Notes under the pieces: generated by a model | Told to the model about the DNA's origin: nothing | What the model saw: the letters and a program-made list of their open reading frames with translations, nothing else | Database searches by the model: none | NCBI GenBank assembly: GCA_033398695.1 | Contig: CM065804.1 | Coordinates: forward strand, 6,991,001 to 7,055,000 | DNA length: 64,000 bases | Source: Orobanche coerulescens | Taxonomy: Eukaryota; Streptophyta; Magnoliopsida; Lamiales; Orobanchaceae | Direction of reading: 5' to 3' | Position numbers and translations under genes: made by a program | Shown here: piece after piece, positions 24,222 to 61,647 of the stretch | How the letters are laid out: each line of letters begins with the position of its first letter | Position numbering within the stretch: position 1 is the stretch's first letter

Positions 24222-24728
24222 TAGCGCACGCTAAGGGACATATGTTAGCGCACGCTAACGAGGAGTCACCGCATTCCACCTAGTATCAAGTAAGTGCAGG
24301 TGAAGTCGCAGATGGATAGCGACGCTACACTCTATTATTAGCGCACGCTACTCTCTATTATTAACGCACGCTATCGAGCCATGTTCTTTGTGGAAGATAT
24401 TCAAACAATGAATGACGTATGCAATGAAGTCATCATTAGCGCACGCTACAAAGGATGATTAGCGACGCTAAGATGTTTGAATCTAGTCAATCCGAACGTT
24501 GGGAAAAGCAGTCAAAGTCGGCATATCAAGCGGTCACTTTGACAATCCATGCAACGGATATATTGGATTAGCGCACGCTACAAAGGAAGTGGTAGCGCAC
24601 GCTAATCGTAATGGCGAGCTACCGGATCGAAATATAAAGTGATTAACGCACGCTACATGAAAGCCTTTACGACGCTAGAGCAAAAATGTGCGATAGCGCA
24701 CGCTAAGAAGGAAGGCTAGCGCACGCTA
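24222..24728. repeat. Array of TAGCGCACGCTA, 22-24 bp pitch (C 5' LTR)
   Basis: Exact 12-mers start at 24222, 24246, 24339, 24437, 24569, 24593, 24694 and 24717. Variants (TAACG..., or with CA missing) start at 24317, 24362, 24460, 24644 and 24667. Neighbours lie 22-24 bp apart within groups of two to four. The motif has 5-bp arms TAGCG/CGCTA around CA. The array ends 42 bp before the TATAAATA box. The 3' LTR equivalent is 27416-27911. Confidence 0.9.
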
Positions 24729-24769
24729 GCTAGTCATTGGCGACAACGGCTAGTAAGGAGGAAGAAGGC

Positions 24770-24777
24770 TATAAATA
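24770..24777 (+). promoter_or_regulatory. TATA box of element C LTR
   Basis: TATAAATA directly downstream of the palindrome array; duplicated in the 3' LTR. Confidence 0.65.
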
Positions 24778-25287
24778 CCAAGAAGTTGGTATTATTCCAT
24801 ACAACAACATTGAGCAAAGCATACATACGTGCTATATCATTGTAAACATTATAGTTGTTGTTCTTGAGCTTAATTAAGAGTGATTGAGTGTTATACACAA
24901 GATCATACACGAGCGATAAAAAGAAAAGATACGATTTGATTCGGTGTTATTAGGATCAAGGATCCGGCATTGTTAGAATCACAATCGCTATCTTAGTGAG
25001 GTTTATCTAGTACCCATAGAAAGCTAGAGTGGTTGATTCCTTATCCAATAGAAAAGGAAAAACGGTTTTACTCGGACCGATAGAAGACGAGCTTGTAACG
25101 GTAATCCCTCGACCGATAGAAGAGAGGCGTAGAGGTTTTGATCTTAAGCCTAAGGAAAAGATACATCGAGAGAGGACGTAGGCTTCGTTAATAGTCGAAC
25201 CTCTATAAATCCTCGTGTCCTTTATTTCCGCAATTTATTTTCGCTTCCGCATAAAACGGCGCAAATATCGATTTGGTACCCAACAAT

Positions 25288-25299
25288 TGGTATCGGAGC
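25288..25299 (+). other. Primer binding site, initiator tRNA-Met (C)
   Basis: TGGTATCGGAGC, two bases after the LTR end; one mismatch to the usual TGGTATCAGAGC. Confidence 0.8.
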
Positions 25300-25339
25300 G
25301 GTTCTCAATACGCGGCTTAACATCCGAGGAGAAAAGATC

Positions 25340-26877
25340 GATGGCGTTTCAAATGGGTCCGTCGAAGGCCTTGCTCTCAACCGACCACCATTTTTGATGG
25401 CTCAAACTTCATGACGTGGAAGAAGAAGATGTCTATATTCATCCGAGCATATGACATCGAGCTTTGGAAGGTGATTTGTCTTGGTCCGAAAATTCCAACA
25501 AATTCCAACGGTACGCTCAAAACCTTCGAAGAATATGACGATTCCGATTGGAAAAATGACCACTACAATTGTAAGGCAACTCAACTTCTCTATTGTGCCT
25601 TAAATCCGGAAGAACACAACCGGATATCATCGTGTGATAGTGCCAAGAAATCGGAAAATGCTTGAGGTAACACACGAAGGTACGTCTCAAGTTAAAGAGA
25701 CGAAGATAAACATGCTCCTTCACGATTATGAATTATTCCAAATGAAGGACGATGAATCCATCTCGATTATGCTCGACCGATTTTCGGTCATCACTAATGG
25801 ATTAGCATGTTTTGGAAAACCACTTTCAAGTAGTGAGAAAGTAAAGAAAATTCTCCGATCACTACCTCGAGAATGGGACGATGCAGTTACGGCAATAATG
25901 GAATCCAAAGATTTAAATACTCTCGATTTTAGTGCTCTCGTTGGTTCTCTTATCAACTACGAGATTGTTCTAAAATCTCGAAATGCCAAACCGAAACCGA
26001 AGGAGAGGTCGATAGCATTCAAGGCTAAAATGTCGAAGAAGAAAGAAGAAACCCGGTGGGCGAAAGTGACGAAGAAATGGCATATTATGCCAAAAATATT
26101 AATAAGTTCCAACACTTATTAAACCGGAGAAAGAAGGACATTCAAGCGGGCGAACCTAAGAAATTCGACAACACTTGTCGATTATGTGGTAAACAGGCCA
26201 CTTTGCTAAGAAGCGTCGAGTAAAGCAAAAGGAAGTTCTAATCGCAACATGGAGCGGCGAAGATCCCGATGAAGATTTTCTTGAACAAAATAATCTCGCG
26301 CTCATGGCGGAGTTCATTCGACGATAGCGGCGTCGAAAGCCAAGTAAGTAATTCCTACGACGAACTTTTTGAAGCATTCGAGTTACTACATACGGACTAT
26401 CAAAATGCTTTAAATGAAATTAAGTCCCTCAAGTCTAAATATAAAACTTTGGAAATTGAAAATTCCAAAATACTTGAAAAAGGGAAATTTGTCGAAATTG
26501 ATCATTCGAAATGCCTTGAAAATGAAAATATTTTGAAAAATGATCTTTTAAAAGTTCAAGATGAACTAAAAATTTTGACAAAGAAATTCTCGTGTGGCAA
26601 CGATAAATTTGAACAAATGTTATGTGTTCAAAAATATACTCTAAATAAAGAGGGGTTAGGATTCAAATCACGTTCGAAAAACGAATCCGTTAATTTCAAT
26701 ATACCCCATTGCGAAAAGTGTTTAAAAATCGGGCATCATATTTCCAACTGCAAAAGCCCAAGACGGACGATAAAAACTAAAAGGATTTGGGTTCCTAAAG
26801 GAACAAACGTTTCAAACATCATCTATGTTTCAAAAGAAAAACCAACTATCGGTTGGATCCCCAAAAATAAATTTTGA
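25340..26877 (+). pseudogene. Copia Gag with two zinc knuckles, frameshifted (C)
   Basis: ATG at 25340 (MAFQMGPSKA). The UBN2-type capsid follows in shifting frames: FMTWKKKMSIFIRAYDIELW (25411 frame) then MLEVTHEGTSQVKETKINML and FSVITNGLACFGKPLSSSEK (25634 frame). A first knuckle remnant (CRLCGKQ...HFAKK) lies near 26180. The last ORF, 26269-26877, has a coiled coil (EIKSLKSKYKTLEIENSKIL) and a knuckle CEKCLKIGHHISNC, ending in the GAG tail IWVPKGT...WIPKNKF. One frameshift falls where ATCTGGAAAATG is expected but ATCGGAAAATG is read, i.e. a lost base in a CTG, so it may be an assembly error rather than a real lesion. Confidence 0.85.
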
Positions 26878-27269
26878 CAAATGATATTTTACAAAGGGGG
26901 AGAAGGAAATAATATTTTCAGGGGGAGTTTATACCCTTATTAATGCATAAATTGGTATCATGCACATTTATTTCATTTGGTATCCTTTATATTTTTTGTT
27001 ATTTTTTGATGAAAACAAAAAGGGGGAGAAAGATATGAATTGAGATAAAAATGAGAAAAATCGAAGAAGTCGAAAAGAAAAAGAAAGCATACAAAAAGGG
27101 GGAGTTAAAACGAAGGAAGGAGTTGAAAAATTGAAAAATGAAGAAGTCGAAAAAGAAAAGGATTGGAGAAACTAACGAAACGATCAAAGTCGAAAACTTT
27201 GATTCGTAGAAATATACATATATTACTTCTTACAGATTATCCAATTCAAGAGTTGTTTTGTAATCATCA

Positions 27270-27282
27270 AAAAGGGGGAGAT
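27270..27282 (+). other. Polypurine tract (C)
   Basis: AAAAGGGGGAGAT immediately before the 3' LTR start TGTTGGAA. Confidence 0.85.
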
Positions 27283-28467
27283 TGTTGGAATATTTATTCC
27301 ACACATTATTTAATTTATGTTTTGATGATTAAAGTTGCTAAACTACAAAACAACATCGAGGCGAAGCAAAACGGCGAAGCAGACGAAGACGCAAAAATTG
27401 CAATCTGGACTGCATTAGCGCACGCTAACGAGGAGTCAGCTGCATTCCAGCCTAGTATCGAAGTAAGCTGCAGTGAAGTCAGCAGATGGATAGCGCACGC
27501 TACACTCTATTATTAGCGCACGCTACTCTCTATTATTAACGCACGCTATCGAGCCATGTTACTGTTGTGGAACATATTCAAACAATGAATGACGTATGCA
27601 ATGAAGTCATCATTAGCGCACGCTACAAAGGATGATTAGCGCACGCTAAGATGTTTGAATCTAGTCAATCCGAACATTGGGAAAAGCAGGTCAAAGTCAG
27701 CATATCAAACGGTCACTTTGACAATCCATGCAACGGATATATTGGATTAGCGCACGCTACAAAGGAAGTGGTAGCGCACGCTAACTGTTAATGGCAGTAG
27801 CTCTTTGGTGAAATATAAAGTGATTAACGACGCTACATGAAAGCCTTTACGTGCGCTAGAGCAAAAATGTGTGCGATAGCGCACGCTAAGAAGGAAGGCT
27901 AGCGCACGCTAGCTAGTCAAGCGGCAACGGCTAGTAAGGAGGAAGAAGGCTATAAATACCAAGGAGTTGGTATTATTCCATACAACAACATTGAGCAAAG
28001 CATACATACGTGCTATATCATTGTAAACATTATAGTTGTTGTTCTTGAGCTTAATTAAGAGTGATTGAGTGTTATACACAAGATCATACACAAGCGATAA
28101 AAGAAAAGATACGATTTGATTCGGTGTTATTAGGATCAAGGATCGGCATTGTTAGAATCACAATCGCTATCTTAGTGAGGTTTATCTAGTACCCATAGAA
28201 AGCTAGAGTGGTTGATTCCTTATCCAATAGAAAAGGAAAAACGGTTTTACTCGGACCGATAGAAGACGAGCTTGTAACGGTAATCCCTCGACCGATAGAA
28301 GAGAGGCGTAGAGGTTTTGATCTTAAGCCTAAGGAAAAAGATACATCGAGAGAGGACGTAGGCTTCGTTAATAGCCGAACCTCTATAAATCCTCGTGTCC
28401 TTTATTTCCCGCAATTTATTTTCGCTTCCGCATAAAACGGCGCAAATATCTGATTTGGTACCCAACA
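27283..28467 (+). repeat. 3' LTR of C (1185 bp), with TAGCGCACGCTA array 27416-27911
   Basis: Pairs with 24090-25285. Array copies that are garbled in the 5' LTR (GCGACGCTA) are mostly intact here (GCGCACGCTA), and the reverse in a few places, which argues that the true motif is invariant. Confidence 0.9.
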
Positions 28468-28534
28468 GAATCGCAAGCCGCGCCTCGCGCATTTTTAAGC
28501 TCATGCAGGCAGGATGCTGGACCGAAGCCCAACA

Positions 28535-28888
28535 ATCCCCCTCCCAGTACCTGCCAGCATCTCAGCCCCATAGTCTGGAAACCTCCGCGAACTAGATTTG
28601 ATCACACAGCCCTCTAGCGGTTGGATTCATTCACACAGTCCTCCAACACTTGACATCAGCATTTGTTTCAGCTCCGTTTACTTCCGCTGCGCCAGTATCT
28701 CAGTTCCAGCATACTAGATTTGATCACATAGCCCTCCAGCACCAGAAAACCTCCACCGCGCCAACATCTTAGTTCCGACCAACTGGCAACATTTGCTGCA
28801 TGCCCGCCTCTCAGTTCCAACACTCTGGCAGCCTCCACTGTAGGATACTCCGAGGGAATCCGCACCCGTGACCTGCTCTGATACCAAT
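28535..28888 (-). other. TRIM internal region 1 with initiator tRNA-Met PBS
   Basis: 354 bp, non-coding. The PBS complement CTGCTCTGATACCAAT abuts LTR 3. It contains short repeats of CTCAGTTCCA-type sequence. Confidence 0.75.
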
Positions 28889-29205
28889 TGTTGGTCCCAG
28901 AAATGATAAAGACTATCCTCACTGTACCAACACGAGTCTTTTCTAGCGCGCTTTGTCCTCACTCACGCGCACCTGAGAAACTTTCCAGGTGGTCACCCAT
29001 CCCATAACTACTCGAGGCCAAGCACGCTTAACTTTGGAGTTTCTATGAGATGGCTACCAGTAAAGAAGATGCATTTTGTTGGTATGAGTAGTCCAAATCA
29101 ATTCATTTAACCACTTTCTAGTGCAGATCTCACAGGTCGAATCGCAAGCCGCGCCTCGCGCATTTTTAAGCTCATGCAGGTAGGATGCTGGACCGAAGCC
29201 CAACA
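28889..29205 (-). repeat. Cassandra-like LTR 3
   Basis: 317 bp, TGTTGGTCCC...GCCCAACA, with a 5S-like segment at about 28976-29092. It is the 5' LTR in the minus-strand orientation. Confidence 0.8.
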
Positions 29206-29698
29206 TATTTTTTTGGTGTAGATTGGCCCAATTTTATACAGGTGGAATTGGCACATTTGATAGGGTGGAATTGGCACATTTGACAGGGTTGGAGTGAAAA
29301 ACTGAAACAAATTCACATCGGTTATAGATGTAACTGATGTTAAATTTTGGGAGCCATTTTACATCGGTTGCAAAACCGATGTAATGACAAATTTAACATC
29401 GGGTGAAAATCGATATAAAAAGTAACAAAGCATTAAAGAATTACAACTTTCACATCGGTTCCAACCGATGTAAATACACATCGATTTACAACCGATGTGA
29501 ATTACAACTTTAACATCGGTTGTAAATCGATGTAAATAGTAACAAAGCACATCGGTTTAACAACCGATGTGAATAACAAATTTTAACATTGAGTTTAAAA
29601 CTGATGTGAATTTTTACATCGGTGGATATGACATCGATTGTAAAACTGATGTGAATCGCATAAATAAATCGATATGAAATTTTATTTTCATAGTAGTG
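29206..29698 (-). mobile_element. CACTA transposon end
   Basis: Reading the minus strand from 29698: CACTACTATGAAAATAAAA, a CACTA terminal repeat. Inside it, to about 29317, are many direct and inverted ACATCGGTT / AACCGATGT subterminal repeats of the kind bound by CACTA transposases. No transposase and no opposite terminus were found. The left side runs to the Cassandra-like LTR, so this is a truncated end or a solo fragment. Confidence 0.75.
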
Positions 29699-29741
29699 AC
29701 GCCTCTTCTTCATATTTTCACCTTTAAATAAATATACTAAC

Positions 29742-30283
29742 ACCATCTCCAATAGAAGCTTTATAACTGCAAACTTCACTCTATTTTTCGTTTTTCAACA
29801 GTGTTGCCTCATATATAATGTAACATTGTTCACCGCATCATTACTGTTTCGTTTTTTTTTTTTCCTTTATGTTTTAATTGTTTTATATTAATTTTATAAT
29901 AATTCTTTTCTTTTGCAGTTCTTTCTTTTTTAGGGAATACAACTCTTTTTATATACAACTCTTTTATCAATGAAACGAAATTATTATAATAAAATTAGAT
30001 TAATAAGAAAATTACATTTAGATTGATAAAAATTATTGATGAATAAATAAATTTCATTATTAGTTAATGGAGATAAAATGCGTTTATATTTGTACAAAAT
30101 TAACATTAGAAAAAGAATATAATAGAATATCTATTTTTACTGTATTTTTGTGCAAATTATTGGAGATGCATTATTAATTGCTGTATTTTTGTGTAAGCTG
30201 TTGGAGATCCATTGTTGATTTGCTGTATTTTTGTGTTTGAAGTTGCGGTATTTTTGTGTAAATTATTGGAGATTGTCTTAGTT
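29742..30283. mobile_element. MITE-like element with ATCTCCAATA ends
   Basis: Left ACCATCTCCAATAG; right side (complement) ACAATCTCCAATAA, with further TTGGAGAT copies at about 30162 and 30199. The interior is AT-rich with repeated GTATTTTTGTG. The boundaries are uncertain. Confidence 0.4.
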
Positions 30284-30568
30284 ATCTCCCTTTTGTCACA
30301 CCATGTATCTTCCTTCAATATTTACTCCTAAAGAAATATAATTAAAAGTAACATCGTCTATTTTTCAGATATGGGTAACTGTTTACAGTAAAAATAAGAT
30401 AAAATATCTCAATTATGCAAGAACAAACATTCATGATATATACTATACTTCAAATATTAAAGAAACTGAATGCTACAACATTCTGAATTTCAAAGAACTT
30501 GGAACCCAAACATCAGTTATAATAATCAGACCGGCTCTTGGTGAAAGCAAGGACAACTTCAACCCAAT
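30284..30568. other. AT-rich, no gene
   Basis: Nothing recognisable. Confidence 0.5.
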
Positions 30569-31138
30569 TAGGGATGGCAAGAATACTCGAACTCGACGAA
30601 AAAATTCGAAACTCGGTCTTAATGATTGGGATGGGGCAGACATTATCGGATTACGGGACGGGGATCGAGGTGTTAACGGAGATTTTTTCGGGGTTCGGGG
30701 CAGTGACTGGGGTGACCGTACTCGCCCCGATATTATATATATTATTTATATTTATATATACTATCTCCGTTCTTTTATAACTGCAACATATGGACTTTCA
30801 CGCTTCCCAATGCACAACTTTGAGTATTAATATCTTCAATTCTTTATTTTTTAAATAACGGAGGTAATATATATAATTATATTTTTATATATATTCTAGC
30901 ATGCATCTTTATTTTTAGTTACACATTGTGTTTAGATTTTGATAATTGTTACCTAGCAATTTCGGGTTTTGGGACAAAAACGGAGAACGGGGTAAGGTTC
31001 GAGATAAACTGTAGTTCTAATAGGACGCCTCGATAAGTTCCCGACAAAAAACGAAACGATGACAGGACAGATTTCAAATTTCGAATTCGGGAACGGAATA
31101 ACCTGCCCCACCCCGAATCCTCCCCATTGCCATTCTTA
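30569..31138. mobile_element. hAT-type element, 570 bp
   Basis: Ends TAGGGATGGCAA and (complement) TAAGAATGGCAA, with 8-bp flanks AACCCAAT (30561-30568) and AACCCAAC (31139-31146), 7/8 identical. Contains a later Stowaway MITE. No transposase. Confidence 0.8.
30759..30866. mobile_element. Stowaway/mariner-type MITE, copy 2 (108 bp)
   Basis: TACTATCTCCGTT at the left and TAACGGAGGTA at the right. The first 100 bp match the reverse complement of the copy at 17768-18028. It is nested in the hAT element. Confidence 0.7.
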
Positions 31139-31657
31139 AACCCAACCCTAATTTGAAATTTTTATTGGATTGGGGTTTAACTATTTTAGTGCAACACTTA
31201 ATTAAATCATACAGAGAGTGAAGACGATGGCCAGAGCGTAATAAAGGTGATTAGTATTTAATTATTCTTTAGATCATGAATGAAGACAATTGTGTTATTA
31301 ATAATAATAAAAAAAAAAGCAACGGAATCTCCATTAAAAAAATGGACAGTCCATATCCATAATCGCACGTACGCGGAAACCTAGAGAGACAAACAACAGA
31401 TTGTTGTAATAATAAACAACAAAAAAGAAAAAAATATTCTGATGATAAGTTGCAAGGTGATTGAGTGAAAACAATTCGACATCGCGGGTTCGAATTTGTA
31501 TGGTGACAATACTTTGCTGAAATATTGCAAAGTTTGTTGTTGGGTTCGTGTCTCGTTGATCCTCTCACTTGTAGGACTGTCATTAGTGCACATTCCTCAA
31601 TTTAATACTCACATGCAAAATTTCTCTGTCTCTTCATTAACAAAAAAAATAATAAAC
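31139..31657. other. No gene recognised
   Basis: AT-rich flank of element G1, ending in the target site TAAAC. Confidence 0.5.
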
Positions 31658-31893
31658 TGTTCGGGAATTATTATTTCCGTGATGTGTCTTACCTAATACT
31701 GGTTGTAGATACATAGATGGTAGGTTCTAGATCATTCTAAATGTAGTAGGATCATATTAGATGTCTTACCTTATCTAGGAATCTTATGTATGAAAGGACT
31801 CTCATTGTAATGCTTATATAAAGGCCCCTCTATCAGTGTTATGAATGCAATTGATTGACTCTATTTACAGTCTTTTTACTTTCTCCTGAAACA
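31658..31893 (+). repeat. 5' LTR of G1 (236 bp)
   Basis: TGTTCGGGAATTATTATTTCC...CTCCTGAAACA, with TATATAAAGG near 31817. Matches the LTRs at 45258-45494 and 45619-45855. Confidence 0.88.
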
Positions 31894-31933
31894 CGTTATC
31901 AACACGTAGCTCAAAGAAAAAAGAAAAAAAACC

Positions 31934-32105
31934 GGCCAGCCCAGCCCGCCGTCGGACCGCCGCCGCCGCCCAGTCGCCGCCACCGTCCAGCTCCAGCCTA
32001 GCCAAGTCCGACCCGGTTCAGAACCTTGGACCAAAAACGAGATCGGATTCCTCCATCCCGTTCGCGCCCGCTGTTGATTGACCTGACCCGACAGCTGCAA
32101 CAAAT
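31934..32105. other. GC-rich variable leader insert of G1
   Basis: Between the PBS and the conserved interior (common again from about 32217), G1 has a GC-rich stretch (GCCGCCGCCGCC...) unlike the sequence at the same place in G2, which is a DUF1685 exon. Origin not identified; possibly another captured host segment. Confidence 0.45.
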
Positions 32106-34498
32106 CAGATTTTTTTTTACTCTCTCAACCATTAGAAAAAACTACAAATTTAACCGTGAAGATCTGATTCGGAACAATATTTCTCGATGAAACTGTAGGC
32201 GAAAGAAAAAAAACAGACGAGAATTTCCGCGCGTAAATTTTCTGCACAGCACATTCGTACTAAAAATATGTTTCTCGATTCGTTAACCGTCGGATCGGTG
32301 TGAAATTTTGACAGCAACTTCCCAACACAAATATCTGTATATTCAACGGTGGAGATCGGATTATGAGTAATATTGATTACTGAATCTGCCGTCGAACAGA
32401 AGTAGATTTTTACGAGGAAATTTGGAGATCCGACCTCATCCAATACCGAGCTGCTGCATCGCCGCGCTCGAGTCCTTGTTTGGCCGAATTATCGAGCCCA
32501 GTAGCCCTATCTGGGCATTTCTCAACTCTCCATCTTTTCCTAATTAATGATTCATTTGTTCATTGATTTGTACACTTATGAATCTTACCATGTTTATGTT
32601 TTACGTGCATATAGGAAAATACGTTGCTCATAATGATGTGCACGCTATGGAGAGAAGCCATATTTATTATCCCATTCAAGGATCAAAGTAAATATAGAAC
32701 GGAGTACCCACGGAAATATGTTGCTCATATGGAGAGAAGCTCCCGTTCAAGGACCAAAGCAAATATAGAACCAAGTACCCGTAAGATTTTATTAAAGTTC
32801 CCGTTTTTCAATACCTCTCTTTTGGGAAAAATTTTTTTTGGGAATTGGGTATTTTGGTTCTTTATCTCCCACGCTACTTTGCGGTGGATGAGACTATGAG
32901 AGGTGGTATCACTCTCGTATGTCGAAGTAAACTGTGTGACGGTCCTGGGGGAGTCACGGATAATTGTTGAAAGTCGATATTTGTGGTTGTTGCATACACC
33001 ACGTTTTGGGTGCGATTTGACGTCGCCGTTTTGTCGATTTTAAACCAACAATTGAAAAAAAATGAACATTGTCGGTAACGGTAAAGTTATGACTCGTTCA
33101 TGATTAGTCACGGATTTGTGACGTACAAATGGGACAAACATCGATTGTGACGGATATGTCGTGGTTAAATTCGATTTGTGACGGAATTGTCACGTTGAAT
33201 TGAGCGACCACCACGTTGGTCTTGACCCAATCCCATACTTGGAAAACTCCATCTTTCATCTTATTAAAATAAAATATTGCATATGGGTGTAGTCATGCAC
33301 CGTCTCCTTGCAATATGATATATGAAAGAATGTACGAGTAATTCTCATGAATTTTAACATGTAAAGCAATAGCATATTGCGGTAAATACATGAATTCGTT
33401 GACCTCGATTATAGTTCGTATGACTATAGGTCCGAATACTTTTCCAAGTATTTGTAAAGGCATGTGCCTTATATATTTGACTATGTTTAGTCGATCTTAT
33501 TGGATGGTCAAGACGAGTTGGTTATGGTATATTCATTATGTCTCATGGTTCAAAATGCTTAATTTTGATGCACCGCGTTGCATCCATATAACATGGCTAT
33601 TATGACGTATGCTTGCAAATTGAGAATTAAAATACTTGGTTGATTGATGCACTTTGGTGGATTTTGTCTACACTTTTGATCATGACTAGGCGCATCCTCC
33701 TTGGTATTTGTTTATGCTTTGAAAGTTCAAACGGAATCAGTGGTTTTTAAACAGCCTTAGCTGTACCGACATTCCTACTTTCTCTGCAAGTCTACCAAGT
33801 TGGAGTTACCGAAAGGATCAGTAGTCGAGATAAGAAATCGAACACACTACTGCATTTAAACGCACCTATGGCTATCATTGCCATGTTTTTGCATCAACAC
33901 TTATGCCATTGGATATGGTCTCAACCTTGTTTTCTCACTAAACTTTGGAAATACTAAAGCAGTCATTTAAAACATGCACTGTGATCTGAGTTTAATAATT
34001 CGTGTGGTGAAAAATATATGGATAGAAAGATACGGAAGTTTAGTTTCCAAAACATCTGACCGTTCGTCCATAGCCTTCCTAACAAGGGAGTTATCGTTGT
34101 TTTAGTGAACAAAGGTCAAGCTGCGCAGAATCTTATTTCGAGCGATTGTGCTAACTTTTGTCCCAACCAACTTGGTTCCCATCTTAAATTTGCAAGTGGT
34201 CTTATGACACATGTTTTTCAACCTCTTTTTGGCCAAATTTGGCACAGATGATGCGATTTTTGGTATACATTGTATGCTAAAATATCATCTCTCAAATGTT
34301 GAAAAACAGTTTCCTTGGGGAAGCCCAAAATACGCACCCTTATAAGAAGGTCGAGCGTGTGCATGGTAGTGTTACACCATGCTTGTATCGTAATTTTGCC
34401 CCTTAGGCATATAACCTTGCCATGTTATGCACTCAATATGATAGATCATTTTGATCGTATTTGGTATAAAATCTCTATGTTGTTAGAGTGTTAGCTAT

Positions 34499-50208: not shown

Positions 50209-50216
50209 TATAAATA
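50209..50216 (+). promoter_or_regulatory. TATA box of B2 LTR
   Basis: TATAAATA, 125 bp after the palindrome array. Confidence 0.6.
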
Positions 50217-51217: not shown

Positions 51218-51235
51218 TGGCGCCGTTGCCGGGGA
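51218..51235 (+). other. Primer binding site, tRNA-Asp (B2)
   Basis: TGGCGCCGTTGCCGGGGA, 6 bp after the LTR end. Confidence 0.92.
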
Positions 51236-51460
51236 AGTATAAGTTATATTTGAAATCTTACATTGTAAACTATTTTTGTAGGTACAAATTTCTCGACGTT
51301 GTAATTTAGTACTAAATTGTGTTTGTCCGGTCAAGTGGCGGATTACGGTACTCCGTGACTATTAAAGTCGGATTTTTCAGTTTCCCACAACAACTGATAT
51401 TTGTAAATATTTTATTCAATTATTTTCATTGTCTTTTTATTTTTATTTTTATTTTTTATC

Positions 51461-52006
51461 ATGGACGAAACATTGTTTAAAATTGAAAAAAGATTTCCCT
51501 TTCTAAGCAAAAATGCAATTTTAAAAATTTACAAGACAAGGCTTGAAAGGATGAGGTTGCTTACGAATAAAAGCATACCTTTTGACATAAGATTCATTAT
51601 CGAAGCTAAAGTAAGAATAGAAGGTGAATTCACAGAAACACCAACTAGATTTTTACCAGGGCTTGGAAAAAGTTCATATGCCAAGAAACGACGAGCAAAG
51701 ATACTAGCCGTTTGCTATAAATGTGCTAGATGGAACTGTAATGCAAAATGTCGATCTTTAGGAATTCCATCTACAAACAGAGAAGATAAAATTCAGTTCA
51801 TTAATGATGGTCTGAATAAGGAGAATTTAGATAATATCGAAATTTATCTTGACACGCATCCTAGTGGACTTGTGTATTACGGAATTCAATGTTTGTGGAA
51901 TAAATTCAAACCAGAATATGAACAACGTCTTGGGAATCTGACGTTAAAAGACCCTGTTTGCCAATTTGTAAGAAAATTGGATGGGAAGCTTCTCCCCGAC
52001 TCATAG
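51461..52006 (+). CDS. Unidentified 181-aa basic, Cys-containing protein ORF
   Basis: Intact ORF from ATG at 51461 to TAG at 52004-52006, 225 bp after the PBS, where gag is expected. I do not recognise it as Gag. Visible features: an N-terminal half rich in Lys/Arg and Ile/Leu, a basic patch YAKKRRAK (residues 73-80), and directly after it a cysteine cluster CYKCARWNCNAKC (C85, C88, C93, C97), a possible zinc site of C-x2-C-x4-C-x3-C type. An acidic/aromatic C-terminal half follows (IYLDTHPSGLVYYGIQCLW). A basic patch followed by a CxxC cluster is reminiscent of the cysteine-rich nucleic-acid-binding proteins of some filamentous plant RNA viruses, but the spacing of the second cysteine pair is shorter and length is greater, so this is only a lead. 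The ORF is free of stops, unlike most ORFs nearby. Confidence 0.6.
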   Translation: MDETLFKIEKRFPFLSKNAILKIYKTRLERMRLLTNKSIPFDIRFIIEAKVRIEGEFTETPTRFLPGLGKSSYAKKRRAKILAVCYKCARWNCNAKCRSLGIPSTNREDKIQFINDGLNKENLDNIEIYLDTHPSGLVYYGIQCLWNKFKPEYEQRLGNLTLKDPVCQFVRKLDGKLLPDS

Positions 52007-52229: not shown

Positions 52230-52237
52230 TATAAATA
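52230..52237 (+). promoter_or_regulatory. TATA box of the LOG-like gene
   Basis: TATAAATA 85 bp upstream of the ATG at 52322, followed by a CT-rich 5' leader, as in an ordinary plant promoter. It suggests the fragment was taken with its own promoter. Confidence 0.5.
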
Positions 52238-52321
52238 AACTTTCTACTGGTTTCTTTCATTCATCCCTCAGACTTGCACTTTTCTCTGTTTCTCTCTAAA
52301 AAAATTTTTTTCTTTTCAAAA

Positions 52322-52529: not shown

Positions 52530-52680
52530 TGTAATACCCGAGATTTCTGTTATGTAGTTGGAACTTGTGATATTGTAATGATTGTACTTGATTTGAGTAT
52601 TATTTTCCGTATTTCATAATCCGATGTTGTCGAGCGTTTAATTCCGTGATTTGGAATTAAAGATTGTAAATCTGCGCATG

Positions 52681-52972
52681 TAGCGCACGCTATCAGCTAT
52701 GTTTAGCGTGCGCTAACGTGGGTTCATAGCGCAGGCTACTGAGTGTCCTTAGCGCACGCTATGCGCGGTCAAATTGATTGAGACGTGCGGTAGGTGAGAG
52801 CTGGCCGGGACCCTGTCGGTTGGTGTCGGGATGTACCAGGACGTCTTTCGGGGAAGAGCCGAGTCAACGCCTTAGCGCACGCTACTGGTATATGCGTAGC
52901 GCACGCTAAGTGCCGAGTCTGCTTTAGCCTGATGAGCCGTTAGCGCACGCTACGAGCGAGTCTAGCGCGCTA
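52681..52972. repeat. TAGCGCACGCTA array 1 in D LTR, quartet at 23 bp
   Basis: Starts 52681, 52704 (TAGCGTGCGCTA), 52727 (one change), 52750: exactly 23 bp apart, with unrelated 11-nt spacers. After a 111-bp gap ending GAGTCAAC come 52873, 52897, 52941 and 52963. The array ends 12 bp before TATAAATA (52985). The 3' LTR copy is at 58216-58513. Confidence 0.92.
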
Positions 52973-53650
52973 ATAGCCATTTATTATAAATAGAATGACA
53001 TCCTATTCGTGATTTGATTCTCTCTTCTCCCATTACCCGAGTTCCTACACTTAGAACATGTCTTCCTTCATCCTAAACATCTCATATCAACATCCTGATT
53101 TGTGATTGAAGATCATTTATCATTGGAGATTGTTGTTCAAGCTTTCGGTGTCGGATTGCTTCATTTTCCTCCGTGTTCTTTACTACTTGAGGTAGGTGAT
53201 TCTTCACTAATGTTAGTAATGTTCTTAAAGACGTCGATCATGCTTAGATAGCCGCTATTTCGTTTATGATCGGTCATCACATGATAGAAGGATACTTTGA
53301 CGTATCGGCACTATCTATCTTATGAACCTTTGAACCATCTTAGTAGATTGGACTCTAAGCGTTTTCAAATCAATTTATGATCGATGTCGGATATTACCCG
53401 GTTGCTACGTTGTACACATTGGAATCATGTGTTTTGGGACTTGGAATAATCGGAACTTAGAATACTTCTGAAGATCTTAGAAAAGATATGATATTGAGAT
53501 GACTATCCGTATATTTGTATTTCACGATCATAAATCTTCCACAAACCTTATTAGCATGATTTGCCGAAGATAACTTGTATTATCACGGTAGAATTCATGA
53601 GTTCTTCACCATTCAACCCATTTTCGGGTTGTAGTATTGCCATGCAATAT

Positions 53651-53840
53651 TAGCGCACGCTAACACATGTGAGTTAACGTGCGCTATCGGGGTCGATTAA
53701 CGCCAAAGCGTCGTAGCGTACGTTATGAGACCAGCCAGTCGATTGCCCAGGCCGTGGCTAGCGCACGCTAGTCTTACACGATAGCGTCACGCTAACAAGC
53801 TCGCTTAGCGCCGCGTTACGTGAAATCGTAGCGCACGCTA
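53651..53840. repeat. TAGCGCACGCTA array 2 in D LTR
   Basis: Starts 53651, 53675, 53714 and the quartet 53759, 53782, 53806, 53829 (23, 24, 23 bp). It lies about 660-850 bp downstream of the TATA box, i.e. in the transcribed part. The 3' LTR copy is at 59202-59391. Confidence 0.88.
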
Positions 53841-55779
53841 AGCAGTTCAAGCAGATTGTATTTTATGAACTTTTGACCGTGAATCAAATTGTTAAACATT
53901 CATGCGACGTGAGATAAATTCTATATCATTTCTTTTGTTAAGGTTTGGCCTCGTTACGTGATTGATTGAGGAGGACGACCGTCGAGTGTTCATTTCCATG
54001 GAAGTATTGTTATTATCTTCAAATCGAGGCAAGTACCTTGATATACGAATTATAATTACGTTGAAATCATTGTTGCTGAAGTATATGAATTATGTCATGA
54101 ATATCTGTATTTATATTATATATATATATATATGTGTGTGGATATTTATGTAGTATTAATTGATAGAGTTGAAGGCCTGATGTGCAAAGTCTTGATGAAT
54201 AACGTGTGAGTTATTGTTTATTCTGCGTAGTTGCGTACTGGCGATTAAATTATGTGGATTGATGAACTGATTTGATAATTGTGGAAACGATTATTTGTGT
54301 GCTTGGTATTTGTAATAATGTGAATACTTGTTATGAGAGACGTCATATCCGGGTACCTCGAGGCGGGCGTGCACTCCGGCTGTTATGCTGCAATGAGCGG
54401 CTCCATATGATTGGTGAACACCGGTGTTACTTAATGCGCGAGCAAGGCGCTCTGTGGGAGTGAACGCCCGCGGTGACATGTGCAATGGGCGGCCAATATA
54501 GTGGAGTGAACGCCGGTACACAGGTGTGCAAGGGAGGCGCCTGGCAGGCTTATTGGTAACGGATATTTGAGTGATAGCTAAGACCCCGTTACCAAATGAT
54601 TTTCGAAATTTAAATCCTTGCAACTTGCTTTTAATGTTGGTCTTGATGTAGACCGCGGATTGTGTTTCTGGAGTTCGTTCCAACTCGTTTTAAATGTTGG
54701 TATCAGAGTTAATTAACCAAGGATATTTGACGAGATCTCCGAGGGTTAATTAACCAGGGGTCTTGAGCAGGATTTGTCGAATGAGAGGCTGTGCCTTTGA
54801 TTGTACTGTGTTGATTATTCTGTGTATTGGGTCGAGGACCCCGTGAGATGTTGAGATTTTATCTCGTGATGATATTATTTGGTTGGGCCGAGAACCCCGT
54901 GAGATGTTGTAATGATTCACTTGTGATAGTGTTTTATCATTTGGGTCGAGGACCCCGAATAACGTTGTAATGGTTTTCTTGCAAATTGTTTTCCACATGC
55001 TGGGTCAAGGACCCGAGAGCTTTTGAAGTATTTTCTAAAATATATTTCCATCTGATTTTCAAAATCCCAAGATGGCCCGAGTCAATATTAATGTGTTCGA
55101 ACTTTCTTATCAAAACACTTTTCATTTTATTAAAAGGGAATTTTCTGACTCCTTGGGCTCGTTTAAAGTTTCATTTGTGTTATGTTGCAGACGGAGAATA
55201 TGACAATGTGATTATCTTTCACCTTGTGTATGTAATACTATTACGTGTTAGCGATTTGAATGTGTGGGTTGTGTTAAGGTTTCACATTTGTTGAGTTTGT
55301 GTTATTATTATTCGTATATCTTGTGTGTTATGTACTTGCACTAGCAAAATTCCGGTTGCTAACCCCGAAGTTTTCGGGGTGGGTGCACATTATGCGCTCG
55401 AGTTTTGGCGGCTCGGGAGCGATCATAGGATTGGTGGGAAGGAGATGGAGGACAATGATACTAATCACACCGAGTTAGAGTCTTTTCTTTTGTTTCATTT
55501 TGGTCGGTATTTCTTTGTCGTTCGAGTATTCACCCTTGCATGGGTGTAGTTTTCATTTATTAAATTGAATTGTCGTTCTTTTCGTGTTCATCTTTATTTT
55601 CATCATTGAGATGTAAAGTTCATTTGTTTGAATTGTTTAATGACCTTGTCGATCTGTTGTATTTAGATTGACCCCGGTCGGTCGGTCATTTTGTAGTCTA
55701 GTAGAGTTTAGCCTTGTAGATCCTTGTAAGAAGGGCTACGGCGTGTAACATTCCGGATGTATTCGGGGTGTTACAAATA

Positions 55780-55791
55780 TGGTATCGGAGC
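55780..55791 (+). other. Primer binding site, initiator tRNA-Met (D)
   Basis: TGGTATCGGAGC, 4 bp after the LTR end. Confidence 0.8.
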
Positions 55792-56792
55792 TTAGGTTGG
55801 CGAAAAACCTAGGCCGTTGGGTCAAGTCCATGTCTTGTGTAAGTCGCGCGTCAAAGTTGTGATTAGTATCGTGGGTCCAACATCATCTTCTAGCTTTCCG
55901 TGATGGTAAGCCTTCCGAATTGTAAGTCCCCTTATATACGTATTTGATTATATTGTGCTTAACGTGAACCTAGGATTTGAACTTGTTAGAGATTATATTG
56001 TTTTACGATATCACTGCGTATACGGTTCGAGTGAGAATGGTTATGTAGTATACTTCGGTAGTCGAACATATTTATCGGTTTCTACATTTCAGTAGGATAA
56101 ATCTTTGAGTGTTAATTTTATCCATTGCGTGAGTATTTTGAAATGACTCTTGACATTTTGGCATTTTTAGTCTTGCACATTTTAACGGTATTTTTATGAC
56201 GGTATTTAATATTTTACAAATGATTTTGTAAGTTTTGGAAAATGCTACCGTAAATCGGCTTTTGGCATATTTTGGAATGAATTTAAATGGTTTTTAGCAC
56301 GGTAGGTTCCGGCACAGAATCCCCGGCATGTGATATTTCCGGGCCGAATTACGAACATTTCAAAGTAGTGTTTTAAAATTTTCCTAGCATTGTAAACCTC
56401 ATGATTTAATGTAGTCGTGTCGAATAGTCACGTATTTTGGTAAAAAGTTCTTTCGAATAAACATTTTGGTAGAAGAGGAAGGATTTTCAAAATTGTGGTA
56501 TTTGGGACTCAACACTTTTGAAATATTTTAAATTAGTTACAATTCGAATTTCAATTTTCTTGTAAGCATTACTCGAAAATAAATTTTTTAGAGTCATTGT
56601 ATAAACTTCCTCTTCCAAAACAAAGGACAGTATTTACAAGTTTTGAGCACAACGTGATTCGACTTTTGTTTCAAATTTTTTTAAAAAAAGCATACGCATA
56701 ATGATCGTCCTGGACGAAGGACTGGAAGTTGATTTCAGAAAATTTCGTGCTTTACGATATTACCGTTATTCTAAGGATGCTAATTAAACCTT
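55792..56792 (+). other. Non-coding leader of D
   Basis: No credible ORF. Contains a short segment CCGGCATGTGATATTTCC and AT-rich sequence; a decayed capsid-coding region is possible but not recognisable. Confidence 0.5.
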
Positions 56793-57377
56793 ATGTTGAT
56801 AATTGTGGTATACCGTACAACCGACTATGTGATAACAATAGACGGTACTATCTGCATTAGCATGACGAGCCCTGGCGGATGTAAACATAATATAGGAAGC
56901 GGAAGAGGTGAAGTGGTTCGTACGACAACGATTCATGTTACGGTGAAGGAATATCAAGATCAGACGATAACCTATGAAACCTCCTCAGTGACCGAGCCAA
57001 CGAGCGGAGAAAAGAGACCGAGGACATCTGGAAAATTTTTGGGCGGTGAAGAGATTAAGGTTCTCAAACCCCCACGTCGTTCGAATACGTCATCTTTGCG
57101 GTCGAGAATGAGCATCGGGAATCCCCAGCCAGCATCGGTGACTCCCGGTAAGAAGAGAGTGTGCTTCAACTGCAACCGTACGGGACATATCCGTGTAAAC
57201 TGTACCTCCCCACTCTTGACTTGTCATCGGTGCGGGTGTGAAGGCCATCGGGAGAAACATTGTGAGATAATTTCCGATTTGGCAAAGAATGCTACTCTGT
57301 CGGTGAGCAGAGCAAGTGGATGGAGAATGACCCGAAACCTTATGTCTTCTGCTGAAGAGCCTATCATAGGCGAATGA
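56793..57377 (+). CDS. Gag nucleocapsid-like protein with two CCHC knuckles (D)
   Basis: 194-codon ORF. The first 40 residues are probably not original coding. Residues 75-115 are Ser/Arg-rich. Two zinc knuckles follow: CFNCNRTGHIRVNC (C124, C127, H132, C137) and CHRCGCEGHREKHC (C144, C147, H152, C157). This is the RNA-binding nucleocapsid end of a Ty3-type Gag without the capsid domain. It could bind element RNA and help packaging by a helper Gag, or be a passive relic. The stop at 57377 precedes a 690-bp non-coding stretch to the PPT. Confidence 0.75.
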   Translation: MLIIVVYRTTDYVITIDGTICISMTSPGGCKHNIGSGRGEVVRTTTIHVTVKEYQDQTITYETSSVTEPTSGEKRPRTSGKFLGGEEIKVLKPPRRSNTSSLRSRMSIGNPQPASVTPGKKRVCFNCNRTGHIRVNCTSPLLTCHRCGCEGHREKHCEIISDLAKNATLSVSRASGWRMTRNLMSSAEEPIIGE

Positions 57378-58050
57378 AGATTTTGTGCCGTGTTCTAGTC
57401 GTTGCTATTTCCAACAATCGTGACTTTGATTGTTTTTCATTTTAATTGCTTTTCGTTTCCAACTCCTGCTGTTTTAAGTTTCGTGGCTGACATGTCTTCT
57501 TAATACGGGGACACGTAGTAACCGTGCTCTTCTTAGTATTTCCGATGTTAGGAGACTTTCATTGTTGATGATTCATCTGTGATTCTTTTGACAATTTCAA
57601 ACTACCATGTTCTACGAACCTACCATCATTCGAACGAATTTCAGAACCGATTTGTTAGACTCTTTGAATTATTGTGGTCTATTCACATCTGAACTTAATC
57701 TTTGCAGAATTTTGTTCGAAACTATTTGTTCCCATTCGTATGGTTAATATTTCCAATGTGTTATGAACTTGAATACGGTGGGTCGAGCTCGACACGCGAT
57801 TTTGGTACATCTGAGCCATTTGTGAATTTCCTTAATTCCGTGAGCTTCTACTTCTCCACTCTAACTTCTCGTGTACGCGTATAACTTATTGCCTCAATTG
57901 ACGTGCCTGATACTTCCTAAGTCTGATCATCGTATTTCTTTTTGAACCTTGCATTCGCGCATCGCTCGTGATATTTTGGGGTTGAGCAAGTAGATACTTT
58001 TCCTTGGTTGTTCCACCACTCTACTTTAAGTTTCGGGACGAAACTTCTTT

Positions 58051-58064
58051 TTAGGGAGGAAGGA
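58051..58064 (+). other. Polypurine tract (D)
   Basis: TTAGGGAGGAAGGA directly before the 3' LTR start TGTAATACCC. Confidence 0.85.
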
Positions 58065-60906
58065 TGTAATACCCGAGATTTCTGTTATGTAGTTGGAACT
58101 TGTGATATTGTAATGATTGTACTTGATTTGAGTATTATTTTCCGTATTTCATAATCCGATGTTGTCGAGCGTTTAATTCCGTGATTTGGAATTAAAGATT
58201 GTAAATCTGCGCATGTAGCGCACGCTATCAGCTATGTTTAGCGTGCGCTAACGTGGGTTCATAGCGCAGGCTACTGAGTGTCCTTAGCGCACGCTATGCG
58301 CGGTCAAATTGATTGAGACGTGCGGTAGGTGAGAGCTGGCCGGGGGACCCCTGTCGGTTGGTGTCGGGATGTACCTGGACGTCTTTCGGGGAAGAGCCGA
58401 GTCAACGCCTTAGCGCACGCTACAGGTATATGCGTAGCGCACGCTAAGTGCCGAGTACAGTTTAGTCCAGTGAGTCGTTAGCGCACGCTACGAGCAGGGT
58501 CTAGCGCGCGCTAATAGCCATTTATTATAAATAGGACAGCATCCTATTCGTGATTTCAGTTCTCTCTTCTCCCATTACCCGAGTTCCTACACTTAGAACA
58601 TGTCTTCCTTCATCCTAAACATCTCATATCAACATCCTGATTCGTGATTGAAGATCGTTTATCATTGGAGATTGTTGTTCAAGCTTTCGGTGTCGGATTG
58701 CTTCATTTTCCTCCGTGTTCTTTACTACTTGAGGTAGGTGATTCTTCACTAATGTTAGTAATATTCTTAAAGACGTCTGATCATGCTTAGATAGCCAGTT
58801 ATTTCGTTTATGATCGGTCATCACATGATAGAAGGATACTTTGACGTATCGGCACTATCTATCTTATGAACCTTTGAACCATCTTAGTAGATTGGACTCC
58901 TAAGCATTTTCAAATCAATTTATGATCAGTAATCGGATATTACCCAGTTGCTACGTTGTACACGTTGGAATCATGTGTTTTGGGACTTGGAATAATCGGA
59001 ACTTAGAATACTTCTTGAAGATCTTAGAAAAGATATGATATTGAGATGACTATCCGTATATTTGTATTTCACGATCATAAATCTTCCACAAACCTTATTA
59101 GCATGATTTGCCCGAAGATAACTTGTATTATCACGGTAGAATTCATGAGTTCTTCACCATTCAACCCAGTTTTCGGATTTCAGTATTCTGCCATGCAGTA
59201 TTAGCGCACGCTAACACGTGTGAGTTAACGTGCGCTATCGGAGTCAGTTAACGCCCGAAACGTACGTAGCGTACGTTATGAGACTAGCCGAGTCGATCGC
59301 CAGACCGTGGCTAGCGACGCTAGTCTTACACGATAGCGTCGCTAACAAGCTCGCTTAGCGCCGCGTTACGTAGAGTACGTAGCGCACGCTAAGCGAGAGC
59401 AGATTGTATTTTATGAACTTTTGACCGTGAATCAAATTGTTAAACATTCATGCGACGTGAGATAAATTCTATATCATTTCTTTTGTTAAGGTTTGGCCTC
59501 GTTACGTGATTGATTGAGGAGGACGACCGTCGAGTGTTCATTTCCGTGGAAGTATTGTTATTATCTTCAAATCGAGGCAAGTACCTTGATATACGAATTA
59601 TAATTACGTTGAAATCATTGTTGCTGAAGTATATGAATTATGTCATGAATATCTGTATTTATATTATATATATATATGTGGATATTTATGTAGTATTAAT
59701 TGATAGAGTTGAAGGCCTGATGTGCAAAGTCTTGATGAATAACGTGTGAGTTATTGTTTATTCTGCGTAGTTGCATACTGGCGATTAAATTATGTGGATT
59801 GATGAACTGATTTGATAATTGTGGAAACGATTGACTGTGTGCTTGGTATTTGTAATAATGTGAATACTTGTTATGAGAGACGTCATATCCGGGTACCTCT
59901 GAGGGCGGGGCGTGCACTCCGGCTGTTGTCTGCCTGATGAGCGGCTCCATATGATTGGTGAACACCGGTGTTACTTAATGCGCGAGCAAGGCGGCTCTGT
60001 GGGAGTGAACGCCGCGGTGACATGTGCAATGGGCGGCCAATATAGTGGAGTGAACGCCGGTACACAGTGTGCAAGGAGGCGCTGGCAGGCTTATTGGTAA
60101 CGGATATTTGAGTGATAGCTAAGACCCGTTACCAAATGATTTTCAAATTTAAATGCTTGCAACTTGATTTTAATGTTGGTCTTGATGTAGACCGCGGATT
60201 GTGTTTCGGAGTTCGCTCCAACTCGTTTTAAATGTTGGTATCGAGTTAATTAACCAAGGAAAATTGACGAGATCTCAGGGTTAATTAACCAGGGTCTTGA
60301 GCGGGATTTGTCGAATGAGAGGTTGTGCCTTTGATTATCTTGTGTTGATTATTACGTGTATTGGGTCGAGGACCCCGTGAGATGTTGAGATTTTATCTCG
60401 TGATGATATTATTTGGTTGGGCCGAGAACCCCGTGAGATGTTGTAATGATTCACTTGTGATAGTGTTTTATCATTTGGGTCGAGGACCCCGAATAACGTT
60501 GTAATGGTTTTCTTGCAAATTGTTTTCCACATGCTGGGTCAAGGACCCGAGAGCTTTTGAAGTATTTTCTAAAATATATTTCCATCTGATTTTCAAAATC
60601 CCAAGATGGCCCGAGTCAATATTAATGTGTTCGAACTTTCTTATCAAAACACTTTTCATTTTATTAAAAGGGAATTTTCTGACTCCTTGGGCTCGTTTAA
60701 AGTTTCATTTGTGTTATGTTCTGTACGGAGAATATGACAATGTGATTATCTTTCACCTTGTGTATGTAATACTATTCTGTGTTAGCCATTTGAATGTGTG
60801 GGTTGTGTTAAGGTTTCACGACTGTTGAGTTTGTGTTATTATTATTCGTATATCTTGTGTGTTATGTACTTGCACTAGCAAAATTCCAGTTTGCTAACCC
60901 CCGAAG
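58065..60906 (+). repeat. 3' LTR of D, interrupted by E
   Basis: Pairs with 52530-55367. Differences concentrate at CAG/CTG and CG sites. It carries both TAGCGCACGCTA arrays (58216-58513, 59202-59391). Confidence 0.9.
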
Positions 60907-61150
60907 TGTAATATCCGGAATCTCTACTACTGATGTTTAATATTATTTTATCCGAGTTATGTTGTACAGCGTGGAATCTGTACAGTATGGATAAAATAAT
61001 GAAGGACTGAGATGTCAGTATTGGTATAATTGTCGTACTTGGTCGACAATTGGATGTAAGAAGTATATGTATTCAGTATGTCGTATGTTCGTATTCTGTA
61101 TGTTGAGACATTGGACAAGAATAGCTGAAAATGGCTAAGTGTAACATTAT

Positions 61151-61647
61151 TAGCGCACGCTAATAATCATGAGTAGAGCACGCTATCGTGCAGGTTTAGC
61201 GCACGCTACGGATATAAGATAACGCACGCTAATGCAGTCAGATCGGAAGGAATCTGCGTGTGGACCAGGCCACTTTCGACGCACATTCTGATAAGTCAAC
61301 GGATGTTGTAATGTAGTGATAGCGCACGCTAATGCATGTTGATTAGCGCACGCTAACTGTATATCGGACAAAAAGGAATCTTATCCTCGTCAGCACTTTC
61401 GGCGTGTGGACCTGTCTTCGGAAGCATACAGAGAAACGAGTCAACTATGAGTATCGCACGCTAAGGTAGGACACTTGCGTACGCTAAATAGAGGCATTTA
61501 CGTACGCTATTGCATGGGCATTGCGTACGTAAATCACTTCATGCAGTAAGACAGTTGCCTCTGGACTTCGATAGCGCACGCTAACAAAGACAATTAGCGC
61601 ACGCTAAGTGTGTAACGTACGTTAACTGAAGATGTTAGCGTACGTTA
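61151..61647. repeat. TAGCGCACGCTA / TAGCGTACGCTA arrays in E, exact 23-bp quartets
   Basis: Quartet 1 starts 61151, 61174, 61197, 61220; pair 61320, 61344; quartet 2 starts 61452, 61475, 61498, 61521; then 61572, 61595, 61613, 61636. Within quartets the pitch is exactly 23 bp. Some copies are TAGCGTACGTTA-type, closer to a perfect palindrome. Gaps between groups (about 90 bp) share AAGGAATC, GTGTGGACC, CACTTTCG and AGTCAAC, so the array has a higher-order repeat. Confidence 0.92.

What the first reader, a model, noticed from the sequence alone, without database searches (positions are those of the whole stretch)
24222..61647. Phased quartets of a 12-bp dyad motif at a fixed 22-24 bp pitch in LTR promoters
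In LTRs of C, D and E the near-palindrome TAGCGCACGCTA recurs with 11-nt spacers of unrelated sequence. In E two quartets are spaced exactly 23, 23, 23 bp (61151/61174/61197/61220 and 61452/61475/61498/61521); in D 52681/52704/52727/52750 likewise. The motif and the spacing are conserved while spacer sequence is not, unlike simple tandem duplication. Arrays end 12-42 bp before a TATA box. Inference: a phased binding platform for a dimeric or multimeric protein on about two helical turns, acting in transcription, silencing or both. I know of no description of it, but I cannot search.
Basis: partly seen in the sequence, partly recalled or inferred. Interest (0 to 1): 0.92.

Follow-up and report, generated by a model that had tools for sequence, protein, structure and literature searches.

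The report
Shared promoter lattice in broomrape retrotransposons
In what appears to be a broomrape-family plant, jumping elements of both main LTR classes carry the same 12-base near-mirror motif every 23-24 bases in front of their TATA box, often with the TATA box in the next position of the series, which likely lets one shared DNA-binding protein switch them on.

Summary
The window lies in a 3.65-Gb plant genome whose plastid matK matches Orobanche best. Pairs of the dyad TAGCGYRCGCTA with 8-14 bp spacers occur 448,933 times, reversed control 0; 268,679 have 23-bp pitch, only 16,228 have 22 and 17,059 have 21. Spacers within arrays are no more alike (33.3%) than spacers of different families (33.0%). 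Arrays occur in copia and gypsy LTRs and before the internal TATA of one copia ORF2. Of 32 arrays, 22 have a TATA within 60 bp on exactly one side, none on both; read towards TATA, 177 of 220 dyad centres are CA, 10 TG. In 100 listed places dyad-to-TATA distances are 21-25 (53) or 44-47 bp (44), i.e. the lattice pitch. I read it as a transcriptional platform for a dimeric protein shared by many LTR families; the protein is unseen. A hint of slower CpG decay in dyads is weak and confounded. My paper searches found no description. New variant of a known kind: hijacked LTR promoter sites.

The parts
24090..25285 (+). Element C (copia-type), first LTR
   Evidence: self-comparison 24090-25285 / 27283-28467, 93.6%; PBS-like site at 25288; copia gag PF14223 between the LTRs
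24222..24728 (+). Dyad array in LTR 1 of C (10 dyads at up to 1 mismatch, all CA centre)
24770..24776 (+). TATAAAT of C LTR 1, 53 bp from the start of the last dyad
27283..28467 (+). Element C, second LTR
27416..27911 (+). Dyad array in LTR 2 of C (10 dyads at up to 1 mismatch)
27951..27957 (+). TATAAAT of C LTR 2
52530..55371 (+). Element D (gypsy-type gag), first LTR as far as it is repeated; the LTR may run on to about 55779, where a PBS-like site follows (inferred)
   Evidence: gag-level match to gypsy-type gag of L033 and L049
52681..52952 (+). Promoter array of D LTR 1, including the quartet 52681/52704/52727/52750
52985..52991 (+). TATAAAT of D LTR 1
53651..53840 (+). Second dyad cluster of D LTR 1, downstream of the TATA, mixed centres, no TATA of its own
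58065..60907 (+). Element D, second LTR (95.4% to the first), possibly cut at 60907 by E (inferred)
58216..58513 (+). Promoter array of D LTR 2
58526..58532 (+). TATAAAT of D LTR 2, 24 bp from the start of the last dyad
59202..59391 (+). Second dyad cluster of D LTR 2
61151..61647 (+). Promoter array of E (F3 family), quartets 61151-61231 and 61452-61532
61659..61669 (+). TATATATATAA of E, 23 bp from the start of the last dyad
62399..62432 (+). Second dyad pair of E (22-bp pitch)
62446..62452 (+). TATAAAA 25 bp after the start of the second dyad of that pair: possible second promoter unit

Best explanation
The arrays are promoter-proximal modules of LTR retrotransposons, and they likely work as a lattice of sites for one dimeric, sequence-specific activator shared by copia and gypsy families. 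Shown from sequence: 12-bp dyads at 23-24 bp pitch with unrelated spacers, mostly directly upstream of a TATA box, with the TATA box often in the next lattice register; a preferred direction (CA centre read towards TATA); the same module before an internal TATA and ORF2 in one copia element. Inferred: each dyad is bound by a dimer; neighbouring dimers contact each other at the fixed pitch; the last dimer helps to place TBP and the initiation complex one pitch away. The factor is more likely a host transcription factor than a product of one element, because both superfamilies and elements without visible pol (C, D) carry the sites; this step is untested. Birth is inferred to be by short duplications (still visible in C and L033), after which spacers drift and dyads are kept by selection among active copies.
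For: Genome-wide pair counts with reversed controls of 0; spacers 8-14 make up 448,933 of 542,294 pairs with spacers 4-34, 83% where 7 of 31 (23%) would be flat. Sample of 20 10-kb stretches at round coordinates: 128 dyads (up to 1 mismatch), neighbour distances 23 (26) and 24 (26), next 21 (7); 59 other dyads made of the same letters reach at most 1 exact hit against 79; 124 of the 128 dyads lie in arrays, in 9 of the 20 stretches. Spacer identity 33.3% within arrays (192 pairs) against 33.0% between families (3,159). TATA on exactly one side in 22 of 32 arrays, on both in 0, on none in 10, where a random 60-bp stretch has one in 9%. Dyad-to-TATA distance in the first 100 listed places: 53 at 21-25, 44 at 44-47, 3 at 38-43. 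Genome-wide 108,885 CA-dyad/TATAWAW places against 14,045 for the AT-matched ATTAWAW; 44,832 places match with a gap of 10-12. Copia: gag or RT in C, L031, L040, L044. Gypsy: in L049 the arrays are followed by a PBS-like site and by gag, protease, RT, RNase H and integrase of gypsy type on the same strand; the D gag matches gypsy-type gag of L033 and L049 (E 1e-13 and 2.5e-12). Between diverged copies dyads keep 86.6% identity against 57.3% for spacers and 61.0% for flanks; 130 of 151 dyads kept. No RNA fold signal on one quartet (z -0.08).
Against: No binding, expression or methylation data. Pair counts are inflated by copy number: they are copies of an unknown, smaller number of families. 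The 9 promoter clusters are not 9 independent origins: D shares stretches with L041 and L049, and E shares stretches outside its array with L041, L047 and L049, so D, E, L041, L047 and L049 may be one gypsy lineage with diverged promoters. 10 of 32 arrays have no TATA within 60 bp on either side. The F1 copia cluster is out of register (gaps 16, 16, 38, 39, 41). Polarity is weaker next to TATA genome-wide (CA 108,885, TG 40,457) than in the sample (177 to 10), and absent in L041/L049 (4 CA, 4 TG) and in the internal promoter (no CA of 5). One search lists only the start of C1 and counts some TATA boxes from two dyads. The contrast is partly an effect of aligners anchoring on repeated motifs.
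Confidence: 0.62

Rival explanations
1. A VANC-like anti-silencing platform: an element-encoded protein binds the arrays and removes DNA methylation; the candidate here is the ORF2 product (PF20167) of the L044 copia element, whose own gene has an array in front of it.
For: Same design as VANDAL21 motif arrays: short motif, same orientation, high density, non-coding (passages of PMC5735166). ORF2 has an array plus TATA in front, has 26 homologs, all named Orobanche, a basic start and a predicted C-terminal helix of 50 residues, and 7,253 candidate places in this genome, of which 100 were scored. In 9 putative LTR pairs, isolated CpG decay is 7 of 197 in dyads, 32 of 352 outside arrays, 13 of 118 in spacers.
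Against: No known DNA-binding domain or fold match (model pLDDT 63). The CpG difference is small (p 0.015), the context-matched control is only 5 of 52, and the LTR-pair data are disturbed by CAG/CGA runs that may be base-calling errors.
Confidence: 0.22
2. Docking site of a host repressor or silencer: the host protein recognises the dyads and the elements fail to lose them.
For: A platform could serve silencing as well; sequence alone cannot tell activation from repression.
Against: Elements would be selected to lose such sites; instead dyads are kept while spacers drift, arrays sit in register with TATA, and they recur in both superfamilies and at an internal promoter.
Confidence: 0.07
3. 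RNA-level element (packaging, polyadenylation or hairpins), because U3 of the 3' LTR is part of the element RNA.
For: Neighbouring dyads can pair; D has a second cluster downstream of its TATA.
Against: The E quartet folds no better than shuffles (z -0.08, 88 of 200 shuffles as good, one stretch only); the preferred CA centre gives two mismatches when dyads pair with each other; arrays are tied to TATA.
Confidence: 0.04
4. Ordinary minisatellite or assembly artefact.
For: Two units of C are alignable tandem copies; some LTR copies show CAG/CGA runs that may be sequencing errors.
Against: Spacers do not align elsewhere; pitch, TATA link and polarity recur in promoters that do not align; 448,933 pairs across the assembly.
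Confidence: 0.02

Closest known systems
VANC-target motif arrays of VANDAL DNA transposons, Arabidopsis (PMC5735166, passages read; PMC10398659, abstract and outline read)
   Same: Short motif, repeated at high density, same orientation, non-coding, evolving by tandem-repeat formation.
   Different: There the arrays belong to DNA-transposon families and their own VANC proteins; here they sit in LTR promoters of copia and gypsy families, with a dyad motif, a 23-24 bp pitch and a TATA box often in register; no binder is known.
ONSEN heat-response elements bound by HSFA2, Arabidopsis (PMC3907296, passages read)
   Same: A dyad-like site in the LTR recruits a host multimeric factor to the element's promoter.
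   Different: One family and a known factor; here LTRs of both superfamilies share one motif in long arrays.
Tnt1 BII boxes in the LTR, tobacco (PMC3316501, passages read)
   Same: Boxes in the element's promoter region that bind host factors.
   Different: The passages seen report no sharing of the boxes with other families and no pitch in register with TATA.

Membership tests
LTR promoter with hijacked host-factor sites (ONSEN / Tnt1 type) | Binding-site-like motif in U3 upstream of TATA | tested here: met
LTR promoter with hijacked host-factor sites (ONSEN / Tnt1 type) | A host factor binds the motif and raises transcription | not testable with these tools
   no binding or expression data
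VANC-type anti-silencing system | Dense same-orientation motif array in non-coding parts | tested here: met
   (mixed orientation in some arrays); reference feature from PMC5735166
VANC-type anti-silencing system | Motif confined to the element family that encodes the binder | tested here: not met
   copia and gypsy LTRs carry it; no binder identified
VANC-type anti-silencing system | Loss of DNA methylation at the array | tested here: inconclusive
   LTR-pair CpG decay 7/197 in dyads against 32/352 outside, confounded
Minisatellite | Units alignable over their whole length, spacer included | tested here: not met
   spacer identity 33.3% within against 33.0% between families; exceptions in C and L033
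RNA structural element | Fold better than shuffles | tested here: not met
   z -0.08 on the E quartet, one stretch only

The most novel reading that the evidence does not exclude
A genome-wide selfish regulon: LTR retrotransposon families of both superfamilies in one parasitic-plant lineage converged on, or traded, the same directional dyad lattice whose last register is the TATA box, so that one trans-acting protein drives, and perhaps keeps unmethylated, a large share of the repeats of a 3.6-Gb genome.
Probability: 0.37. Interest if true: 0.92.

Novelty: new variant of a known kind. Interest (0 to 1): 0.77.

Why it matters
Retrotransposon families are usually thought of as regulated each by its own U3. 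One lattice shared by copia and gypsy elements, often in register with TATA, would mean that one factor controls much of a plant genome's mobile content. It would make directly testable how element families share activators, whether shared arrays protect from methylation, and whether such a regulon helped a broomrape-type genome to grow.

Tried and rejected
Raw CpG decay between LTR copies looked spectacular (0 of 120 in dyads against 65 of 522 elsewhere, 5 pairs) but shrank with 9 pairs (9 of 247, against 45 of 422 outside and 40 of 210 in spacers) and with a filter for isolated changes (7 of 197 against 32 of 352, p 0.015; context-matched non-dyad sites 5 of 52). The reason is clusters of CAG/CGA-type differences; kept only as a hint. 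One search failed on a BLAST setting.

A recurrent deletion at the dyad centre (TAGCGACGCTA), suggested by the alignments, is 4 in the window but 1 in the 200-kb sample; dropped. A first idea that polarity varied by family came from misreading L037, where the array belongs to an LTR beside another element; TATA orientation settled it.

An earlier count said 23 of 31 arrays; a recount gives 22 of 32, used here. Not counted: clusters with fewer than 3 dyads.

The pattern, meant to catch promoters with a given start-codon context, found another repeated family (52 + 56 places) and says nothing on ORF2. One viral contig and one bacterial contig hold a pair; not followed, taken as near chance. Candidate plant factors whose cores resemble the dyad (NAC, BZR, CAMTA types) were considered from memory only. 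Exact 12-mers in print: 5 papers, unrelated by title; other searches without a description of this: (listings and abstract starts seen). One search, on the PF20167 protein, was uninformative.
Full report
Setting. The window is G000:C4:6991001-7055000 of a 3.646-Gb assembly. Its plastid-type matK (contig C258) has Orobanche as best matches: 92% to a cluster named after O. hederae, 89% to O. austrohispanica (best 120 of 3,206 listed).

Observation. The dyad occurs 61 times in the window at up to 2 mismatches, 2.65 expected, and the quoted positions are right, the 61521 copy being degenerate. In 20 stretches of 10 kb at round coordinates on C1-C8 there are 79 exact and 128 near (up to 1 mismatch) dyads, while 59 other dyads made from the same letters have at most 1 exact hit each; 9 of the 20 stretches hold arrays of at least 3, and these contain 124 of the 128 dyads. 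If that sample is fair, the genome holds about 2.3 million near dyads (extrapolation).

Pitch. Genome-wide there are 448,933 pairs with spacers 8-14 and 542,294 with spacers 4-34, both with 0 for the reversed control. Pitch 23 has 268,679, pitch 22 16,228, pitch 21 17,059; the remaining 146,967 are pitches 20, 24, 25 and 26, and in the first 100 listed pairs these are 3, 36, 0 and 0. Distances of 60-400 bp keep a phase near 23.5 bp (R 0.20, n 520, distances not independent). These are counts of copies, not of independent origins.

Spacers. Within arrays, spacer pairs are 33.3% identical (192 pairs); between families 33.0% (3,159 pairs). At 70% identity or more: 1.6% within, 0.4% between. The exceptions, in C and L033, look like young duplications. 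Between diverged copies in seven pairings (three of them within the E family), dyads are 86.6% identical, spacers 57.3%, flanks 61.0%, and 130 of 151 dyads are kept; the aligner favours repeated motifs, so this is an upper contrast.

Promoter link. Of 32 arrays of at least 3 dyads (window, sample, merged C1 loci), 22 have a TATA within 60 bp on exactly one side, 0 on both, 10 on none; a random 60-bp stretch has one in 9%. The gap from last dyad to TATA is 10-12 bp in 12 of 22; the other ten are 16-41: five of the F1 copia cluster, D LTR 1, C1_538074, L041, L049 and the internal promoter. Genome-wide, 108,885 places have a CA dyad followed by TATAWAW within 6-35 bp, against 14,045 for ATTAWAW, a control that partly overlaps TTATAAAT; 44,832 places match with a gap of 10-12. 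In the first 100 places, all near the start of C1 and some of them the same TATA seen from two dyads, the distance from dyad start to TATA start is 23 (25), 24 (21), 46 (10), 47 (22); 53 of 100 lie at 21-25 and 44 at 44-47, where the search ended. Thus TATA often takes the next register of the lattice.

Polarity. Read towards TATA, the centre is CA 177, TA 20, CG 11, TG 10, CT 2 of 220 dyads. It holds in most promoter clusters but not in L041/L049 (4 CA, 4 TG) or the internal promoter (none CA of 5). Next to TATA genome-wide it is weaker: 108,885 CA, 40,457 TG. The sites are therefore directional in most arrays, although their arms are symmetrical; flanks add T before (68 of 128) and A after (68 of 128).

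Which elements. C, L031 and L040 have a copia gag and align to each other. L049 has, on the strand of its promoter array, a PBS-like site at 6039 and then gypsy-type gag, protease, RT, RNase H and integrase zinc domain. The D gag piece matches gypsy-type gag of L033 and L049 (E 1e-13, 2.5e-12). E belongs with L037 and L047 and shares LTR stretches outside the array with L041, L047 and L049, so it is probably of the same gypsy lineage. Masked promoter regions form 9 clusters without alignable sequence between them, but these are fewer than 9 lineages; the copia and gypsy superfamilies remain two. In L044 a copia element has, in order, RT (PF07727), a dyad cluster, TATATATA, ORF2 (PF20167, E 2.9e-10, 40.8 bits, below that family's cut-off of 45), a purine-rich tract (by eye), and an LTR with 16 dyads and TATAAATA. 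E has a second dyad pair with TATAAAAA 25 bp on.

ORF2. It has 26 homologs at E 1e-5, all named Orobanche (minor, hederae, gracilis), a basic start and a long C-terminal helix (22 of the 26 aligned), but no recognised DNA-binding fold (pLDDT 63; no PDB match at E 0.001). It is a candidate binder, no more.

Methylation hint. Between LTR copies of 9 putative pairs, isolated CpG changes are 7 of 197 in dyads, 32 of 352 outside arrays, 13 of 118 in spacers; non-CpG changes are 5 of 754, 48 of 6,242 and 32 of 1,699 (flank 3). This would fit protected dyad CpGs, but CAG/CTG sites differ most (35% against 7% overall outside arrays), with local CAG/CGA swaps that look like base-calling trouble. I give it little weight.

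RNA. The E quartet folds no better than shuffles.

Interpretation. The geometry (directional dyad, 23-24 bp pitch, TATA often in register, unrelated spacers, two superfamilies) fits a protein lattice in transcription best. That a dimer binds, that neighbours touch, and that it activates are inferences. Activation is preferred to repression because elements keep the sites. A host factor is preferred to an element-encoded one because both superfamilies, and elements without visible pol in the window (C, D), carry the sites; a VANC-like system remains the main rival.

Known relatives. VANC arrays (PMC5735166, passages; PMC10398659, abstract and outline) resemble it in density and orientation, ONSEN (PMC3907296, passages) and Tnt1 (PMC3316501, passages) in using promoter sites in the LTR. 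None of my searches (listings and abstract starts) showed this motif or a lattice shared across LTR superfamilies; subscription papers and preprints were not searched.

Noticed in passing
window 51407-52003 (+): 199-aa reading frame with Carla_C4 / Viral_NABP similarity; 141 homologs at E 0.001 (120 listed), including Orobanche minor (84%), a 109-member O. gracilis cluster, Populus, Acer and Xanthoceras: a virus-like nucleic-acid-binding protein spread in plant genomes, lying just upstream of D.
   Followed up: partly
LTR pairs C, D, L031 and six pairs on C1: Array spacers differ about three times more between the two LTR copies than the rest of the LTR (non-CpG 149/2390 against 138/7151), and CAG/CTG sites differ most: base-calling errors at methylated CHG, local hypermutation or conversion.
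   Followed up: partly
window 62399-62452: Second dyad pair in the E LTR followed by TATAAAAA in register; possible second promoter.
   Followed up: no
L044 7375-8481 (-): PF20167 ORF2 between RT and LTR of a copia element; 7,253 candidate places in the genome, 100 scored.
   Followed up: partly
window 53651-53840 and 59202-59391: Second, mixed-polarity dyad cluster in the D LTR about 0.7 kb after the TATA, with flanks shared with L041 and L049; role unknown.
   Followed up: no
window 19015-20070 (-): MULE transposase reading frame (PF10551, E 3.3e-20).
   Followed up: partly
window 4175-4281 (+): snoR71 plant C/D snoRNA above Rfam gathering score.
   Followed up: no
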